In this document: in pieces, positions 1,365-9,394 of the stretch
How positions within the stretch are numbered: position 1 is the stretch's first letter
Layout of the letters: the number at the start of each line of letters is the position of its first letter
Source: Spirochaetales bacterium
Lineage (GTDB): Bacteria; Spirochaetota; GWE2-31-10; MWDO01
DNA: 53,144 bases
Assembly: GCA_017540815.1 (NCBI GenBank)
Contig: JAFYAI010000014.1
Coordinates: forward strand, 1 to 53,144
Direction: 5' to 3'
Position numbers and translations under genes: made by a program
The notes under the pieces: model-generated
Told to the model about the DNA's origin: nothing
What the model saw: the letters and a program-made list of their open reading frames with translations, nothing else
Database searches by the model: none

Positions 1365-1901
1365 TTACACAGCTACATTCTGAACAGTTGTGCCGAATAT
1401 TTTCTGCAGTTCTTCAACAGTGTGCATCTCACCAACTACATTATTGTTCTCGTCGAAGAGAAGAACTGTCGGTGTAGACTTTACACCATACTGCTTAGCC
1501 TGCTCTACTCCGATGTCACCTGTAACATCCAGCATTTCGCCCTGCATCTCCACATTATTCATGAATCGCACTACCGGCGGGCAGTTGCGGCAGAACTGGC
1601 TGTGGAAAAGTTTGTAAGAAGCCGGCTTACCCTGCGGAACACTGCTGTTGATCTCATCAGCAGCAACATGGCGTGGCTCTTTATCTGTCACAGCAGCCAT
1701 TCTCTGCTTGATCTGCTTGTCATTCAGCTCGAATGTCTTGCGATAGTTATACTCCTCCCGCTTGCCTTTGTTCCAGTTAGCAACCGATCTAAAATAACCT
1801 ACAATCCGTGTATATATTTCTGTCTGAGTTCCTTCTACCTCATTATACTTAGCTTCCAATGCTGCGATCTCTTTATCGATGTCCTGTACTGTTCTTTCCA
1901 T
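1365..1901 (-). CDS. Separate glycyl-radical domain fused to thioredoxin domain (class III RNR)
   Basis: A 178-residue protein. Residues about 30-57 match the C-terminal glycyl-radical segment of NrdD: TRIVGYF, with Gly35 as the predicted radical site, followed by the NWNKGKREE stretch typical of that tail. A thioredoxin/glutaredoxin fold follows, with FCRNCPP (Cys104, Cys107) as the redox pair and STPT with the cis-proline near residue 144. Class III reductases keep the radical Gly on the catalytic chain, and nrdD just upstream lacks it. The ATG lies one codon past the nrdD TAA, in the same frame, with GGGAG 8 bases before it. I infer that this chain completes the reductase and brings its own reductant. 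Readthrough of the TAA, giving one fused chain, is the alternative. Confidence 0.85.
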   Translation of the reverse strand: MERTVQDIDKEIAALEAKYNEVEGTQTEIYTRIVGYFRSVANWNKGKREEYNYRKTFELNDKQIKQRMAAVTDKEPRHVAADEINSSVPQGKPASYKLFHSQFCRNCPPVVRFMNNVEMQGEMLDVTGDIGVEQAKQYGVKSTPTVLLFDENNNVVGEMHTVEELQKIFGTTVQNVAV

Positions 1902-1904
1902 TTT

Positions 1905-4028
1905 TTATGCTCCCATTGATTTTTTATTTATAAGCGTTACACGCTCTTTTTTCAGTTTATTTATCTCTCTCATTATCTCGGCTCGCTCCTCTTCTGCACA
2001 CTTCTCACAATGGAAATGCTCACCATTGAGATAGCCGTGTTTCGGGCAGACAGAGAATGTCGGCGAAATCGTGAAATACGGAATGCGGTAGTTATACGCA
2101 ATCGACTTCACAAGGTCACGGCATGCCTGCCAGCTGTTGATCGCCTCACCCAAGAATCCGTGGAATACAGTTCCTCCGGTATACTTAGTCTGCAGCTCTT
2201 CCTGCATATCAAGTGCCTCAAATATATCATCCGTGTAATCAACAGGCAACTGCGATGAGTTAGTATAGAATGGCTCATCCGTTCCGCTGGTGATAATATC
2301 AGGATAACGCTCCTTATCATGCTTAGCAAGACGATAGCTTGTGGACTCGGCAGGAGTCGCTTCAAGATTGAACAGATCCCCCGTCATCTCCTGATAGTCA
2401 GCGATACGCTTGCGCATATAGTCCAATATCTCGATAGCAAAGTCTCGTCCTTCTTTCGTCGTAATATCTTTGCCCATAAAGTTGAGCAGACACTCGTTCA
2501 TACCATTGATACCGATAGTCGAGAAATGACTGTCGAAGTGTTTCAGATACTGCTTAGTATACGGGAACAAGCCATTCTCCATCAATCGATTGATCACCTT
2601 ACGCTTAGTCGTAAGACTCTCGGCTGCCAGATCCATCAGATATTTGAGCCGATCGAAAAACTGTGTCTTAGTCTTAGCCAAATATCCGATACGCGGCAGA
2701 TTAATCGTAACAACACCGATAGAACCTGTCATCTCATCTGCACCAAACAGACCGCCGCCTTTCTTGCGAAGCTCACGCTTGTCAAGCTGCAGTCGGCAGC
2801 ACATTGATCGAACATCGCTCGGATTGAGATCACTGTTGATGAAGTTCTGGAAATACGGAGTACCGTATTTGGCAGTCATCTCAAACAGGAGTTTGGCATT
2901 CTCAGAATCCCAATCAAAGTCTTTAGTCACATTGTAAGTCGGGATAGGATAGCCAAATCCACGACCGTTAGCATCACCTTCAATCATTATCTCGATGAAT
3001 GCCTTATTGATCATATCCATCTCTTTCTGATAGTCACCGTAAGTCGTGTTCAGTTTCACACCGCCGACAATCGCAGGCTTATCACGCAGATCGTCAGGAA
3101 CAGTCCAGTCAAGCGTAATATTGGTAAACGGAGCCTGAGAGCCCCATCTGGACGGAGTATTGACACCGAAGATGAAACTTTGTATAGACTGCTTAACTTC
3201 ATCATAGTTAAGTCCGTCTGCACGCACAAACGGAGCAAGATAAGTATCGAAACTTGAGAATGCCTGTGCACCGGCCCACTCATTCTGCATAATGCCGAGG
3301 AAGTTCACAATCTGGAAAATCAGAGTATACATGTGCTTGGCAGGCTTGGAACTGATCTTGCCTTTGACACCGCCCAAACCTTCCTCGATGAGCTGTCGAA
3401 GAGACCATCCTGCACAGTAACCGCTGAACATACTCAGATCGTGAATATGGAAGTCAGCATTGCGGTGAGCCTCAGCAACTTCCGGCGAATATATATTCTG
3501 CAGCCAGTAGTTAGCGGTAATAGCACCGGAGTTATGAAGGATAAGACCACCCAGCGAGTAATTAACATTGGCATTCTCATTGACACGCCAATCCATCTGA
3601 CTAAGATAACCGTCCATCGTCGAATCAATATCGAGGAACAGCTGCTTAGAGTCACGCATAACTTTGTGTTTCTCACGATAAATGATGTAATTCTTCGCAA
3701 GAACAACCTCACGCTGCTCAATCAGCACCTCTTCTACAATGTCCTGTATCTCTTCGATAGCAGGTGCAGAGTTGGCATGACGCTTCTTCATAAACTCTTT
3801 GAGCTTCTCTTCAACGCAGTCTGTCAGGTGTGCTACCTTTTTAGTATCATCAATGCCATTCTCAATGGCTGCCTTATTAATCGCATCGAAAATCTTCTGT
3901 TTGTTGTAGACTTCAAGCTGTCCATCGCGTTTGATGACATGCTTAACTACAAAGTCGGATGAATCATCAGCTTTGTCTTGCAGACCTAAGAAATCTCTTC
4001 GCCAGCTGGTAAGTGATTTATCTCCCAT
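1905..4028 (-). CDS. nrdD: Anaerobic ribonucleoside-triphosphate reductase, catalytic chain without radical domain
   Basis: 707 residues; class III RNR, which reduces ribonucleotides to deoxyribonucleotides without oxygen. An N-terminal ATP-cone starts at VIKRDGQ (about residue 28) and serves as the allosteric site. The barrel follows, with the active-site cysteine segment SMCCRLQLD near residues 405-413 and GGGLFGADEMTGSIG after it. Near residues 660-680 is a metal-binding knuckle (CPKH...CEKC). The chain then becomes a Lys/Glu-rich helix and stops at TAA (1905-1907) before any RVxGY glycyl-radical motif, which is encoded by the next frame. It sits 12 bases after nrdR in one operon. No nrdG activase gene is present in the window. 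Confidence 0.93.
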   Translation of the reverse strand: MGDKSLTSWRRDFLGLQDKADDSSDFVVKHVIKRDGQLEVYNKQKIFDAINKAAIENGIDDTKKVAHLTDCVEEKLKEFMKKRHANSAPAIEEIQDIVEEVLIEQREVVLAKNYIIYREKHKVMRDSKQLFLDIDSTMDGYLSQMDWRVNENANVNYSLGGLILHNSGAITANYWLQNIYSPEVAEAHRNADFHIHDLSMFSGYCAGWSLRQLIEEGLGGVKGKISSKPAKHMYTLIFQIVNFLGIMQNEWAGAQAFSSFDTYLAPFVRADGLNYDEVKQSIQSFIFGVNTPSRWGSQAPFTNITLDWTVPDDLRDKPAIVGGVKLNTTYGDYQKEMDMINKAFIEIMIEGDANGRGFGYPIPTYNVTKDFDWDSENAKLLFEMTAKYGTPYFQNFINSDLNPSDVRSMCCRLQLDKRELRKKGGGLFGADEMTGSIGVVTINLPRIGYLAKTKTQFFDRLKYLMDLAAESLTTKRKVINRLMENGLFPYTKQYLKHFDSHFSTIGINGMNECLLNFMGKDITTKEGRDFAIEILDYMRKRIADYQEMTGDLFNLEATPAESTSYRLAKHDKERYPDIITSGTDEPFYTNSSQLPVDYTDDIFEALDMQEELQTKYTGGTVFHGFLGEAINSWQACRDLVKSIAYNYRIPYFTISPTFSVCPKHGYLNGEHFHCEKCAEEERAEIMREINKLKKERVTLINKKSMGA

Positions 4029-4040
4029 TTTACACTCCGT

Positions 4041-4496
4041 TTAATCTAATACTTCTTTAATCTTCTCTTTAAACTCATTCTCTTCATTTATATACACAGA
4101 TGCAAATCTGATATATGCAACTTTGTCAATATCACGCAGAGCATCCATTACAAAATCACCAACTTCCGCAGAAGAGATCTCCATCGAACCGGCACTGTAT
4201 GCTTTGGCATTGATCTTCTCCTCTATCTCCGAAGCAACCTTCTCAATAGTCTCCTGCGATACGGGGCGTTTCTCAACAGCCTTGCTGATACCGTTAATCA
4301 CCTTCTGAATATTGAAGTCCTCTCTGCGTCCGTCACGCTTGACGACCATAACAGACTTCTCCTTAACATGCTCATACGATGTAAACCGATAGCCGCAGTT
4401 CAGACACTCTCGCCGTCTGCGAAGTGTGCTGCCACCGTCAGCCTGTCTCGTCTCCAATACTTTATCATCTAATGATGAACATTTCGGACATCTCAT
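4041..4496 (-). CDS. nrdR: Transcriptional repressor NrdR
   Basis: 151 residues, the normal NrdR length. The N-terminal zinc ribbon has CPKC at residues 3-6 and CLNC near 31-34, with the RRRREC and YRFTSYE segments between and after, as in the family. An ATP-cone starts at VVKRDGRRE near residue 51 and senses ATP/dATP. NrdR represses ribonucleotide reductase operons. Here it is the first gene of an operon with nrdD, and a near-perfect NrdR box lies between its promoter and start codon, so it probably represses itself and nrdD together. Confidence 0.97.
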   Translation of the reverse strand: MRCPKCSSLDDKVLETRQADGGSTLRRRRECLNCGYRFTSYEHVKEKSVMVVKRDGRREDFNIQKVINGISKAVEKRPVSQETIEKVASEIEEKINAKAYSAGSMEISSAEVGDFVMDALRDIDKVAYIRFASVYINEENEFKEKIKEVLD

Positions 4497-4851: not shown

Positions 4852-4910
4852 AAGACCTCACCCCTGCCTTCGGCATCCCCTCTCCATCGAAAATCGACGG
4901 AGAGGGGCTT
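4852..4910. repeat. CCTCACCCC-type palindromic repeat, intergenic copy
   Basis: It begins AAGACCTCACCCCTGCC, then a hairpin: CCCCTCTCC (4877-4885) pairs with GGAGAGGGG (4899-4907). The same leader and hairpin core occur twice inside the type IIG gene (7512-7660). Confidence 0.75.
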
Positions 4911-6136: not shown

Positions 6137-9100
6137 CTACTTCCCTTCCACCACTCTTATCTCATCATCAGTCAGTCCGTACAGTTTATACACACTGTTA
6201 TTTATCTGCCGGTCTATTAAATCTATCTTCTGTTCCAGCATTCTTTTGTCACTGTCACTCATTGCATTGGCGAGTTGCGTTTTGGCAAGCATCATCTGTT
6301 CTGCAAGTGAAGCAAGTTTTTGAGCCGTTTCATCATCAAGTTTAGGGAGAGGGAAAGGCTCAAGATATTTTGTTTTGAAACGAAAATATCCGCCGCGAAG
6401 CGAAGTTCCTGTTTTTTGCAAAAAGTACCAAGTAACAGAAGAATTCAAAATTGCAAGATACGCTTTATAAAGACGATCATCGGGATTATTGAGAACTAAA
6501 CCATAAGATGTATCATTATGGAAATAACCAATGTCATCAAACACCATTGATGATCCATAACAAATATCAGGCGTAAGAATTTTCTTTGAAGTCAGATTTA
6601 ATATATTTCTTGCATTCCAAAGAGCATACCATATTGGATATTTCATTGAAGCAGAGCCTCGGCTTTCCAAGCGTTTCTTTATTGACAAGAAATATTCATA
6701 ACAGTTCGGGAAATTTTCTTTCATCTCTTTTTCTGTATAAAAAACGGTTTTATTTTCAATCAAATGATATGGGAAAATAATATATTCATTTTTATGTATA
6801 AGTTCATATCTGGAAATTGTTTTTCCTGTAAAAATAGGCTTACAAATTTCTTTTTCAATCTTTATCCTTGATTCCGTTGCAGCAGAAAAGCCTTCTATCA
6901 TTTTATCACTTTCAATACAATCTGTAAGATAAAAAGCCTTATTATCTCCGCTGACAATTCCCTGAAAAATACCTTTAAAAATATCTTTTACAGTAAAAGG
7001 CATTGTATTTAATTTATCAAGAATTACATTATCATCTGATTTTGTTATATTCCATTTATCGATGGTTGATAAACTTTTTTCATCTATTTTCTCAAAATTT
7101 ATTACATTTTCAATTTCTTTTGGTTTCACCTGAGCAAAGTCAAATTCTTTATTGCCGTGAGAAAGTCCAACAATACAGGTATAAACGCTTGCTCTCTCAA
7201 AAACCTGCTCCGCTCCAAAATGAACAAGGTAGCGAAGAGCGTTATTATCATATATAAATTTACGAATTCCTGTGCCAAAGTCAGCATTAATAAATTTATG
7301 CGGCAATATAAATGAAAGAATACCGTCTTTATTCAAGAGAGAAAAACCTCGTTCCATAAACAGAATATAAAAATCAAATCTTCCTGTCGCCGACTTATAT
7401 TTCTTCTCATAAAATTTTGATTCTTCTTCGTAATTCTCACGCAGTCCCTGCACTCTAAGGTACGGCGGATTGCCAATCACACAATCGAAACCGCCAAGTG
7501 ACGCTTGTGAGGAGACCTCACCCCCTGCCCCTCTCCGATGCGGAGAGGGAAGATTACCGTCGTTATTGGTCATAAAGTCCGTCGAAGCGGCACTATCCAT
7601 AGAAGAAAAGACACAGTTCCCCTTCTCCACTTTGGAGAAGGGGTTAGGGGTTGAGGTCTTATCAGAAGAGGCGTAATTCTGTGAGGTCTTTGTCAAAGTA
7701 GTCTTAAATACATCTGCGAACTCAGTCCCCCAATCAAAGGCATTAATCTTTCTCTGTTTAGACATATCGAACAGGAGAATGTCTTTATCATCATAGTAGT
7801 CACTGCCGATAAGAGAGTTGCCGCATTTAATATTGCCGCTCATCGACGGAAGGATTTTTTCCGACAGATCAGACTGCCGAAACAAAAGTGTTTGACCATG
7901 TGACAGGGCTTTGCCTTCATTCTCAAGAAGTTTGAGGAACAATGACAGCTTCGTAACTTCGACTGCCTGAGCATCAATGTCCACGCCATAGATATTGTTA
8001 ATCAGTATCCGACGCTTCTCTTCGACAGAGAGTTTATAGTCATGAGTAACAGAGTCTTTATAAATGATGCCTTTCTTTTCATAGTATAGAATGTCTTTAC
8101 TAAGATAATAATCCAAATGCCAATCAAGCAAATACTGATATGCACCGACAAGGAAACTGCCGGAACCGCAGGCAGGATCAAGGAAACGCATTTTCGATAC
8201 TTCATCAGGAGTTTTGCCTTCGATTTTCTTGCCGATAGTCTGACGAACAATATACTTGACAATATACGGCGGTGTATAATAGACTCCGCCGGCTTTCTGC
8301 ACTTCAGGTTTCTCAATAATCTCAACGGAATGTCCGTTTTTCGTTTTCCGCGAGAACCGAATAATCTTGCCCAAGAACTGTTCATAGATAGAACCAAGTA
8401 TCTCAACCGGCAGAACACTGAACTCATACTGACATTCAGGATAGTAGAGTGCGTTAATAATAAGGCAAAGAGTTTTATCCGAAATGTTTAGACTGTCAAG
8501 CCATTTATCGGAAGCAAACAGACCTGCGTTAAATTTGTCATTAGCCGCGCAGAAGAGTTTTTTCAACTGAAGATAGATGTCGATTTTACCATCAGCAATC
8601 TTTTTGAGTGAATTATATTCTTCAATCTCTTTATCTTCACAGATTCGCAGGAACAGAATGCGGTCAATGATACGCTGAACGGCTGATGTCAGATTATATT
8701 CATCAATGTCCTCATTATGCAGTGCAATATCTTCAGCCAAATATGCACGCCACTGCTCTATCATTGCAAGAATATCATCATCAACTGTTGCTGTTCCTTT
8801 TTTATCTTTGGCACTTTCATAGAATGTGTCGAAATGACCAAGATCTACGGCTTCCCAGCTGATTTTTTTATACAACTCCTCAAATTTATCGGGAAACTGC
8901 TGATATGTTATATATTCAATGCGAGCCGCCGCAGAATTATCAGTTTTCTTCGGTTTGATGCGGGTATCATAGATAGCCAACTCTTGGAAATCGGTCAAAA
9001 TGGCGATTGGCATTTTAGATGTGTAAGCATATCGACGCACCTGCAATGCCGGTGACGGATCATTTTTCAGATCTATGCTTGGCTGTTTGGCTTCGATATA

Positions 9101-9394
9101 GATTTTGCGTTCACCGCCATAACACAATGTGTAATCAGGATGTTTAACAGTCCCGTTTATAACAACCCGATCCTCGGTGATTACTTCCTGTTTATCATGT
9201 CTTGCACCTTTTTCGTTTTTGACATCCCAGCCGAGACATTCCAGCAGCGGATCGATAAACTTCGACCGGCATTCCGACTCTACGAAGTCTTTGCTCATAT
9301 AGAACTTTTCGCCTTCGCGAAATTGCTCGACCAATCGAGATATTATCTCTTTGCGTTTCTGCATTGACATTGATTTGCATTTTATATCAGGCAT
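6137..9394 (-). CDS. Type IIG restriction-modification enzyme (Eco57I-like)
   Basis: 1085 residues: one chain that both cuts and methylates DNA. The N-terminal nuclease is a PD-(D/E)xK fold with Asp87 in HPDYTL and Glu101-Ala-Lys103 in YIEAKQ. The adenine methyltransferase has motif I DPACGSGSF (406-414) and motif IV NPPY (near 640). The rest is a TaqI-like target-recognition region. AAGGAG stands 8 bases before the ATG. Just before NPPY is an insert of about 50 residues (including SPHRRGAGGEV and TPNPFSKVEKG) encoded by two inverted palindromic repeats. No separate specificity or restriction subunit is adjacent, as expected for type IIG. Target sequence is unknown. Confidence 0.9.
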   Translation of the reverse strand: MPDIKCKSMSMQKRKEIISRLVEQFREGEKFYMSKDFVESECRSKFIDPLLECLGWDVKNEKGARHDKQEVITEDRVVINGTVKHPDYTLCYGGERKIYIEAKQPSIDLKNDPSPALQVRRYAYTSKMPIAILTDFQELAIYDTRIKPKKTDNSAAARIEYITYQQFPDKFEELYKKISWEAVDLGHFDTFYESAKDKKGTATVDDDILAMIEQWRAYLAEDIALHNEDIDEYNLTSAVQRIIDRILFLRICEDKEIEEYNSLKKIADGKIDIYLQLKKLFCAANDKFNAGLFASDKWLDSLNISDKTLCLIINALYYPECQYEFSVLPVEILGSIYEQFLGKIIRFSRKTKNGHSVEIIEKPEVQKAGGVYYTPPYIVKYIVRQTIGKKIEGKTPDEVSKMRFLDPACGSGSFLVGAYQYLLDWHLDYYLSKDILYYEKKGIIYKDSVTHDYKLSVEEKRRILINNIYGVDIDAQAVEVTKLSLFLKLLENEGKALSHGQTLLFRQSDLSEKILPSMSGNIKCGNSLIGSDYYDDKDILLFDMSKQRKINAFDWGTEFADVFKTTLTKTSQNYASSDKTSTPNPFSKVEKGNCVFSSMDSAASTDFMTNNDGNLPSPHRRGAGGEVSSQASLGGFDCVIGNPPYLRVQGLRENYEEESKFYEKKYKSATGRFDFYILFMERGFSLLNKDGILSFILPHKFINADFGTGIRKFIYDNNALRYLVHFGAEQVFERASVYTCIVGLSHGNKEFDFAQVKPKEIENVINFEKIDEKSLSTIDKWNITKSDDNVILDKLNTMPFTVKDIFKGIFQGIVSGDNKAFYLTDCIESDKMIEGFSAATESRIKIEKEICKPIFTGKTISRYELIHKNEYIIFPYHLIENKTVFYTEKEMKENFPNCYEYFLSIKKRLESRGSASMKYPIWYALWNARNILNLTSKKILTPDICYGSSMVFDDIGYFHNDTSYGLVLNNPDDRLYKAYLAILNSSVTWYFLQKTGTSLRGGYFRFKTKYLEPFPLPKLDDETAQKLASLAEQMMLAKTQLANAMSDSDKRMLEQKIDLIDRQINNSVYKLYGLTDDEIRVVEGK
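7512..7660. repeat. Inverted pair of palindromic repeats inserted in frame in the type IIG gene
   Basis: The left copy (7512-7551) has the hairpin CCCTCTCCG/CGGAGAGGG. The right copy (7619-7660), in the opposite orientation, has CCCCTTCTCC/GGAGAAGGGG followed by GGTTAGGGGTTGAGGTCTT. The pair bounds about 149 bases and keeps the reading frame. Confidence 0.85.

What the first reader, a model, noticed from the sequence alone, without database searches (positions are those of the whole stretch)
1365..4028. Class III ribonucleotide reductase split at one in-frame stop, with the radical domain fused to a thioredoxin
Seen: nrdD ends with TAA, then AAA, then an ATG in the same frame. The downstream frame holds the RIVGYF glycyl-radical segment plus a CRNCPP thioredoxin fold. 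The catalytic chain has no radical glycine of its own. GGGAG stands 8 bases before the second ATG. Known: NrdD normally carries the radical Gly on the same chain, and some class III enzymes use a redoxin as electron donor; GrcA is a free-standing radical domain that repairs pyruvate formate-lyase. Inference: here a small swappable subunit could carry both the radical and the reductant, so an oxygen-cut radical domain could be replaced without remaking the enzyme. UAA readthrough giving a three-domain fusion is the other option.
Basis: partly seen in the sequence, partly recalled or inferred. Interest (0 to 1): 0.85.

Follow-up and report, generated by a model that had tools for sequence, protein, structure and literature searches.

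The report
Ribonucleotide reductase with swappable radical subunit
In this anaerobic bacterium the enzyme that makes DNA building blocks is encoded by two genes, a large chain without the radical-carrying glycine and a small protein that carries that glycine beside a thioredoxin, and the small protein likely plugs into the large one as a replaceable radical cartridge; many relatives share the split, and many virus genomes carry such small radical proteins on their own.

Summary
On the minus strand follow nrdR, a 707-aa NrdD that stops just before the glycyl-radical segment, TAA-AAA-ATG, and a 178-aa protein (helix, radical loop RIVGYF, thioredoxin fold with CRNC). It is no point mutation and very unlikely a read-through site: in 72 of 80 related loci both genes are present, none of the 72 catalytic chains has its own loop, and frames are unrelated (28/21/23). 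Of 52 relatives' genomes with NrdD, 40 have a truncated core plus the radical domain in another frame; three more keep it in one chain after a long linker. In G017 (99% complete, no class I/II enzyme found) the only separate radical gene lies on another contig. The window's genome shows no other RNR and has NrdG2. Best reading: a two-chain class III RNR whose radical subunit works in trans and could be replaced after oxygen damage. Beyond the finding: 118 of 125 fetched viral loci (105 in frames of at most 120 aa) hold an NrdD radical domain with no NrdD core nearby. Assembly, chemistry and exchange are untested.

The parts
4041..4496 (-). nrdR, transcriptional repressor of RNR genes, 151 aa
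   Evidence: TIGR00244 159.2 bits; an nrdR gene lies upstream on the same strand in 56 of 68 related loci
1905..4028 (-). nrdD catalytic chain, 707 aa, without radical glycine
   Evidence: NRDD 1-537/562, 614 bits; PRK08270 1112 bits
3663..3944 (-). ATP-cone (residues 29-122)
   Evidence: PF03477 71.1 bits
3414..3416 (-). Cys205, probable active-site partner cysteine (role inferred)
   Evidence: aligned with a cysteine of T. maritima NrdD 4coi
2793..2804 (-). finger-loop motif MCCR (residues 409-412)
   Evidence: same motif in 68 of 68 related cores and 52 of 52 tree rows
1998..2048 (-). zinc-site motif CPKHG...CEKC (residues 661-677)
   Evidence: sequence; comparison with intact relatives
1920..2006 (-). 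extra C-terminal helix of the core (residues 675-703), heptad pattern
   Evidence: AF2 model; hydrophobic positions +8, +12, +15 in 99% and +22/+23 in 74/82% of 68 cores
1905..1907 (-). TAA stop of nrdD, followed by AAA and the next ATG in frame
1910..1914 (-). GGGAG, Shine-Dalgarno-like, 8 bases before the second ATG
1365..1901 (-). radical-redoxin subunit, 178 aa
1839..1889 (-). N-terminal helix of the radical subunit (residues 5-21), heptad pattern
   Evidence: model; hydrophobic positions in up to 80 sequences
1731..1826 (-). glycyl-radical domain, NRDD positions 532-562
1797..1799 (-). Gly35, radical glycine in RIVGYF
   Evidence: invariant in the 64 aligned sequences
1395..1619 (-). thioredoxin-fold domain (residues 95-169)
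   Evidence: model pLDDT about 90, best Foldseek matches are thioredoxins, E about 1e-5
1581..1592 (-). redox motif CRNC (Cys104, Cys107)
   Evidence: both Cys invariant in the 64 aligned sequences

Best explanation
This is a two-gene class III (anaerobic) ribonucleotide reductase in which the 707-aa catalytic chain lacks the radical glycine and a separate 178-aa protein carries it with a thioredoxin domain, and the two chains likely assemble in trans. Shown by sequence: the split and its conservation, no other RNR found in this genome, the activase NrdG2 elsewhere in the genome, the invariant radical Gly and CxxC. Inferred: the extra helix at the end of the core and the extra helix at the start of the small protein pair as a coiled coil and hold the subunits together; the radical loop then enters the barrel beside the finger-loop cysteines, as in one-chain NrdD. 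NrdG2 would put the radical on Gly35; the radical would pass to a finger-loop cysteine and start nucleotide reduction; the attached thioredoxin would reduce the disulfide left in the active site. Because the oxygen-sensitive glycine sits on a small separate protein, a cut radical domain could be replaced by a fresh copy (chromosomal, extra, or from a virus) without remaking the catalytic chain; this last step is the least certain.
Against: No biochemistry. In the model the glycine loop itself has pLDDT under 50 (742-748), and the two helices were joined by an artificial linker, so their pairing is not shown. nrdG lies on another contig here. The genome is a draft, 93% complete, so an unseen RNR is possible. 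Many split-bearing genomes also hold a class I/II enzyme (12 of 24 genomes examined have a PF02867 match), so the split form is not always the only RNR. Three genomes of family f18 (G024, G035, G045) keep the radical domain in the same chain after a long variable linker, so a separate chain is not required. Genomes with a radical domain but no core were seen (those of L038 and L066; G149), perhaps incomplete drafts. Subunit exchange is inferred from gene distribution only. Relatives without the thioredoxin have the same MCCR motif, so the motif does not show that the thioredoxin is the donor.
Confidence: 0.8

Rival explanations
1. The split is a fixed gene fission: the subunits form a permanent complex, radical and core are made and lost together, and nothing is swapped.
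For: Paired helices suggest stable docking; nrdD and the radical gene are usually neighbours (72 of 80 loci); three f18 genomes have the two parts in one chain again or still.
Against: Unlinked radical genes (G017, G025, G036, T. vincentii), two or three radical genes in 9 of the 40 split genomes, and virus records that carry only the radical domain (34 of 37 whole records searched).
Confidence: 0.3
2. The stop is read through, giving a three-domain single chain in part of the molecules.
For: TAA-AAA-ATG is in frame here; single-chain NrdD-radical-thioredoxin proteins exist (L166, 802 aa; L115, L119, L120, L124, L127, L128, L133, L137).
Against: Own ATG and GGGAG at a usual distance; 44 of 72 relatives out of frame; unlinked in some genomes.
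Confidence: 0.03
3. The 178-aa protein is only a repair part for an intact NrdD elsewhere, like GrcA for pyruvate formate-lyase.
For: Stand-alone radical domains resemble spare parts; some spirochaetes hold both an intact and a split NrdD (for example G293, G349, G381, G383, G115); G094 holds an intact NrdD and a separate 99-aa radical gene.
Against: No intact NrdD found in the own genome; the neighbouring core itself lacks the radical segment.
Confidence: 0.03
4. The thioredoxin domain is not the electron donor (formate is used) but serves folding, docking or protection of the subunit.
For: The finger loop keeps the methionine of MCCR, which passages of PMC9669993 link to formate use; relatives whose subunit has no thioredoxin have the same motif.
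Against: CxxC and Pro144 invariant in 64 aligned sequences; CxxC in 79 of 80 loci.
Confidence: 0.3

Closest known systems
Class III ribonucleotide reductase NrdD (T. maritima, P. copri, T4, S. thermophilus structures)
   Same: ATP-cone, NrdD barrel, finger-loop cysteine, zinc site, radical-loop sequence, NrdG-type activase
   Different: Radical glycine on a separate polypeptide; helices added on both sides of the cut; thioredoxin on the radical chain
GrcA / YfiD and T4 Y06I, spare radical domains for pyruvate formate-lyase (PMC8683613, passages seen)
   Same: Small stand-alone protein that carries a glycyl-radical domain; a viral version exists (Y06I)
   Different: NrdD type, not PFL type (only NRDD matched); here the partner enzyme is born without its own radical domain, so the part would be obligatory. 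PMC8683613 states that only YfiD and Y06I were validated and speculates that parts for other enzymes may exist
Trx-using class III RNR of Neisseria bacilliformis (NrdD2; known here through passages in PMC9669993 and PMC4493059)
   Same: Two adjacent finger-loop cysteines; thioredoxin as possible donor
   Different: Separate thioredoxin there; here thioredoxin rides on the radical subunit, and the NrdD chain is cut
Single-chain NrdD with C-terminal thioredoxin (L166, MT835493.1; spirochaete family f49)
   Same: Same domain order, CPNC redoxin after the radical loop
   Different: One chain; in the three printed (L115, L120, L166) no extra helices at the joint
Split class II RNR of Pseudomonas aeruginosa (title in the reference list of PMC9669993; rest recalled)
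   Same: RNR cut into two chains
   Different: Class II, cobalamin; the cut does not separate a glycyl radical

Membership tests
Class III RNR (NrdD) | NrdD barrel homology | tested here: met
   614 bits to PF13597, fold match to NrdD structures
Class III RNR (NrdD) | Finger-loop cysteine | tested here: met
   MCCR at 409-412
Class III RNR (NrdD) | Radical glycine at the C-terminus of the same chain | tested here: not met
   NRDD profile ends at 537 of 562; the rest lies on the second protein
Class III RNR (NrdD) | NrdG-type activase in the genome | tested here: met
   TIGR02495 182.6 bits
Class III RNR (NrdD) | Glycyl radical and NTP reduction observed | not testable with these tools
   needs EPR and enzyme assay
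GrcA / YfiD | PFL-type glycyl-radical domain | tested here: not met
   Pfam finds NRDD and thioredoxin families only
GrcA / YfiD | Partner enzyme is made with a radical domain of its own | tested here: not met
   the neighbouring core encodes none, and no other NRDD match was found
GrcA / YfiD | Restores activity of an oxygen-cut enzyme | not testable with these tools
   needs assay
Thioredoxin-dependent NrdD2 | Third active-site cysteine (CC in the finger loop) | tested here: met
   MCCR
Thioredoxin-dependent NrdD2 | Active-site glutamate | not tested
   position not assigned with certainty
Thioredoxin-dependent NrdD2 | Reduction by thioredoxin | not testable with these tools
   needs assay
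Split class II RNR | Class I/II barrel PF02867 | tested here: not met
   0 matches in own genome

The most novel reading that the evidence does not exclude
Class III ribonucleotide reduction in several bacterial phyla runs on exchangeable radical cartridges: hosts make a radical-less catalytic chain, and small glycyl-radical proteins, from the chromosome, from extra copies, and from infecting viruses, plug into it; viruses carry the cartridge alone and so switch on, repair or take over the host's DNA-precursor supply.
Probability: 0.5. Interest if true: 0.92.

Novelty: new variant of a known kind. Interest (0 to 1): 0.82.

Why it matters
In the one-chain glycyl-radical enzymes the oxygen-fragile residue sits in the same chain as the active site. 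An RNR that keeps this residue on a separate small protein would show how cells in changing oxygen can replace only the fragile part, and makes repair of a class III RNR directly testable. The virus-borne copies suggest that DNA-precursor supply of anaerobes may be controlled during infection with a protein of some 40-100 residues. It also warns that searches for full-length NrdD mislabel the halves: small copies carry names such as anaerobic ribonucleoside-triphosphate reductase or the label nrdD (ANMV-1).

Tried and rejected
Point mutation or sequencing error: rejected by 72 loci and 40 genomes with the same cut. Read-through: rejected by frame and linkage. My first count, 43 of 43 genomes split, rested on profile ends; a check of the open frames showed that three of them, all of family f18 (G024, G035, G045), are one chain of 768-824 aa with a long variable linker after a tail like that of the mini-split cores, perhaps re-fused; the count is now 40. 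One origin of all splits: on a 52-row tree of the catalytic chain (25 split with thioredoxin, 13 split mini, 7 intact, 7 intact with thioredoxin) the AU test rejects all 38 split rows as one clade (p 3e-118), while the 25 thioredoxin-type rows as one clade are not rejected (p 0.44); the test for the 13 mini rows did not finish. So two or more fissions, or later re-fusions. Literature: ten searches gave, in the listings and passages I saw, no paper describing a split NrdD or a virus-borne lone NrdD radical domain as such; the library lacks most subscription journals, and the 2014 PNAS paper on N. bacilliformis is not held. NCBIfam: the 178-aa and a 63-aa subunit reach no model's cut-off. PHROGs: of four lone viral proteins three give weak local matches to the end of NrdD families, one none. 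Phage record collection: 2 and 3 records matched; ANMV-1 is a lone domain, MT835493.1 (L166) a one-chain NrdD-thioredoxin, the Oceanotoga phage has one NrdD gene that ends in the radical loop. Co-folding was done on one joined chain; helix pairing cannot be read from it. Organisms outside Spirochaetota could not be scanned by genome; only names show them.
Full report
WHAT IS THERE. The window's first 4.5 kb hold, on the minus strand, nrdR (4041-4496), a 707-aa class III ribonucleotide reductase chain (1905-4028) and a 178-aa protein (1365-1901). The large chain has an ATP-cone and matches the NRDD family up to position 537 of 562; the small one matches 532-562, the glycyl-radical segment with RIVGYF, then a thioredoxin domain with CRNC. 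TAA, AAA and ATG follow in one frame; GGGAG stands 8 bases before the ATG. The window is bases 1-53144 of contig C11 of a draft genome of 3.07 Mb in 160 contigs, 93% complete; its relatives are spirochaetes.

IT IS THE ONLY RNR FOUND IN THIS GENOME. The two genes give the only NRDD matches, the class I/II barrel family has none, and an NrdG2 activase is present on another contig. Three genomes of the same family also show no class I/II barrel. With 93% completeness a missed gene cannot be excluded. Elsewhere the split form is often accompanied: 12 of the 24 genomes examined have a class I/II match.

THE SPLIT IS OLD AND GENETIC. A scan of species genomes found 110 relatives of the 178-aa protein, of which the best 80 were kept, all titled as spirochaetes. 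In 72 of these 80 the catalytic gene lies upstream; none of the 72 has its own radical loop; the two genes are in frame in 28 and out of frame in 21 and 23. Of the other eight, a core or part of one was found elsewhere in the genome for L030, L035, L036 and L073, none for L038 and L066, the genome of L049 has an NrdD with its own loop, and that of L078 was not searched. Of 100 relatives' genomes 52 have an NRDD match. In 43 of these the core match stops at profile position 525-539 and a second match covers the rest; in 40 of the 43 the two lie in different open frames, by fetched loci or by the frame lengths listed; in three, all of family f18, one frame of 768-824 aa holds both, with a long variable linker. 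Nine of the 40 hold two or three separate radical domains. Of the nine genomes left, G021 is also split (core 708 aa, radical frame 64 aa), and of the other eight one (G094) has a separate 99-aa radical gene beside an intact NrdD. In a wider draw 241 of 392 genomes have NRDD; its match table was cut and profile ends alone proved unsafe, so I give no share of split forms there. In G017, 99% complete and without PF02867, the single 61-aa radical gene is on another contig than nrdD. In G025 and G036, one contig each, it sits beside nrdG, far from nrdD; these two also have a class I/II enzyme.

TWO KINDS OF SPLIT. One kind has a radical subunit with thioredoxin and an N-terminal helix, mostly 170-220 residues between stops; the other a short one without either, 56-77 residues between stops in 11 of 12 loci listed (162 in L107). 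In-between forms have helix and loop but no thioredoxin (L052, L153, L154). On a tree of the catalytic chain the two kinds fall in different deep groups, each also holding one-chain enzymes; one clade of all split forms is rejected. One-chain relatives with the same domain order (NrdD, radical loop, thioredoxin) exist in spirochaete family f49 and in a record named Bacteriophage sp., so the thioredoxin was probably fused before the cut; that order is my inference. The f18 chains keep the tail of the mini-split cores before their linker, which looks like re-fusion, also inferred.

HOW IT LIKELY WORKS. The nine one-chain relatives that I printed pass from the zinc site to the radical loop within a few residues. 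In the thioredoxin kind the core goes on after the zinc site with a helix whose positions +8, +12 and +15 are hydrophobic in 99% of 68 sequences, and the small subunit begins with a helix whose positions -9, -16, -20 and -23 are hydrophobic in 93-100% of those long enough (80, 74, 58 and 57 sequences). This fits a coiled-coil dock. A fold of the joined chain (TAA read as K; mean pLDDT 78.6, pTM 0.69) gives both helices at pLDDT of about 90 and more and lets the trans radical domain align with that of solved NrdDs; the glycine loop itself is poorly determined, and pairing of the helices cannot be read off. Folded alone, the small protein shows a clear thioredoxin fold and a low-confidence radical loop. 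The finger loop is MCCR in all cores examined; PMC9669993 (passages seen) takes such loops to be able to use formate or thioredoxin. CxxC is invariant in 64 aligned subunits, rows that I chose from the hits, and present in 79 of 80 loci. A gene like the own NrdG2 (phmmer E 1e-10) starts within 400 bp downstream of the radical gene in 49 of 76 loci with room.

RADICAL SUBUNITS IN VIRUSES. A pattern scan of IMG/VR with stand-alone radical domains gave 210 relatives, the best 80 kept; a second scan with the 178-aa family gave 45. These 125 loci lie on 121 contigs. In 118 there is a radical domain and no NrdD core in the fetched stretch, 4 have a separate core nearby, 3 have loop and core in one frame. 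Three of the 118 are double entries of one gene; 105 of the 118 frames have at most 120 residues, median 63.5 between stops; one (L291) is an 806-residue frame and not a small protein. The scans select for radical-domain motifs and the best hits were kept, so this is not a share of all viral NrdD. For 37 whole records (36 of these that I chose plus ANMV-1) 34 hold only the radical domain and 3 also a core cut at the same place. Phage genes lie beside them where tested (portal and terminase on L180; primase, helicase and RecE-like nuclease on L247; integrase on L260). Architectures differ: mini; CxxC pairs plus radical loop; and, in ten lone loci (eight sequences), helix plus radical loop without thioredoxin. 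In nine helix-type viral heads (eight lone ones and L264, which has a core nearby) positions -16 and -20 are hydrophobic in 9 of 9, -9 in 8 of 9, -23 only in 2 of 8. Two extra chromosomal copies tested lie next to phage-type genes (L147: helicase loader, SSB, resolvase, HNH; L143: RecE-like nuclease); for others this is by eye. A search with a viral protein found 740 further stand-alone proteins, 120 listed, the named ones from Victivallaceae and other Victivallales, Lentisphaerae, Thermoguttaceae and Desulfobacteraceae, so the thing reaches beyond spirochaetes; whether those genomes have a cut NrdD was not tested.

WHAT IS KNOWN. PMC8683613 (passages) states that only YfiD and Y06I, both for pyruvate formate-lyase, were validated as spare radical parts, and that parts for other glycyl-radical enzymes are possible. 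PMC4390871 and PMC9531940 (passages) describe the radical glycine as part of the class III enzyme chain. PMC4372165 (one figure-legend passage) labels the short ANMV-1 gene simply nrdD. My ten searches found no report of a split NrdD (listed under Tried and rejected), within an open-licence library, from listings and passages.

VERDICT. Trans assembly is the natural reading where no other RNR is found; exchange after oxygen damage is likely enough to test first, and the virus copies are the best sign for it.

Noticed in passing
L167-L291 (IMG/VR): 118 of 125 fetched viral loci hold an NrdD radical domain without a core nearby (105 in frames of at most 120 residues); 34 of 37 whole records searched have no core at all.
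   Followed up: yes
L165:2680-3114 (ANMV-1 virus, KP703175.1): Archaeal virus gene annotated as anaerobic ribonucleoside triphosphate reductase is a 144-aa protein with CxxC pairs plus radical loop, and no NrdD core in the record.
   Followed up: partly
L193, L203, L206, L211, L226, L235, L275, L284: Viral radical proteins with cysteine pairs or CxxC motifs before the radical loop, as if they bring their own zinc site; judged by eye.
   Followed up: no
L146, L152 (genomes G029, G017): The radical gene (frames of 76 and 61 residues) is neighboured by a radical-SAM-like protein with GPVxSRRLGxSLGIDL near its start rather than by an NrdG2 match; possibly another activase (by eye).
   Followed up: no
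P0270, P0288, P0299, P0322, P0351: Stand-alone radical proteins of Victivallaceae, Lentisphaerae and Desulfobacteraceae begin MxKC, as if bringing the last zinc cysteine, so a zinc site could be shared between two chains.
   Followed up: no
L293, L294, L295 (genomes G024, G045, G035, family f18): One-chain NrdD of 768-824 residues with a long variable linker between a mini-split-type tail and the radical loop; looks like a re-fused split gene.
   Followed up: partly
T. vincentii genome (G392:C1:1689617-1691222): The NrdD core is read in two overlapping frames and lies about 0.17 Mb from its radical gene; a class I/II RNR is present.
   Followed up: no
L166:1030-4350 (MT835493.1): One-chain NrdD-radical-thioredoxin of 802 aa directly followed by a thioredoxin-reductase-like gene (by eye), in a record named Bacteriophage sp..
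   Followed up: partly
window 4877-4907: 14-nt inverted repeat CCCCTCTCCATCGA/TCGACGGAGAGGGG with 3-nt loop between nrdR and the next gene; one copy of its core in the window at up to 3 mismatches.
   Followed up: partly
window 6137-9394 (-): 1085-aa ORF that looks like a DNA-methylase-type restriction enzyme, with a repeat-like stretch (LPSPHRRGAGGE) inside; judged by eye only.
   Followed up: no
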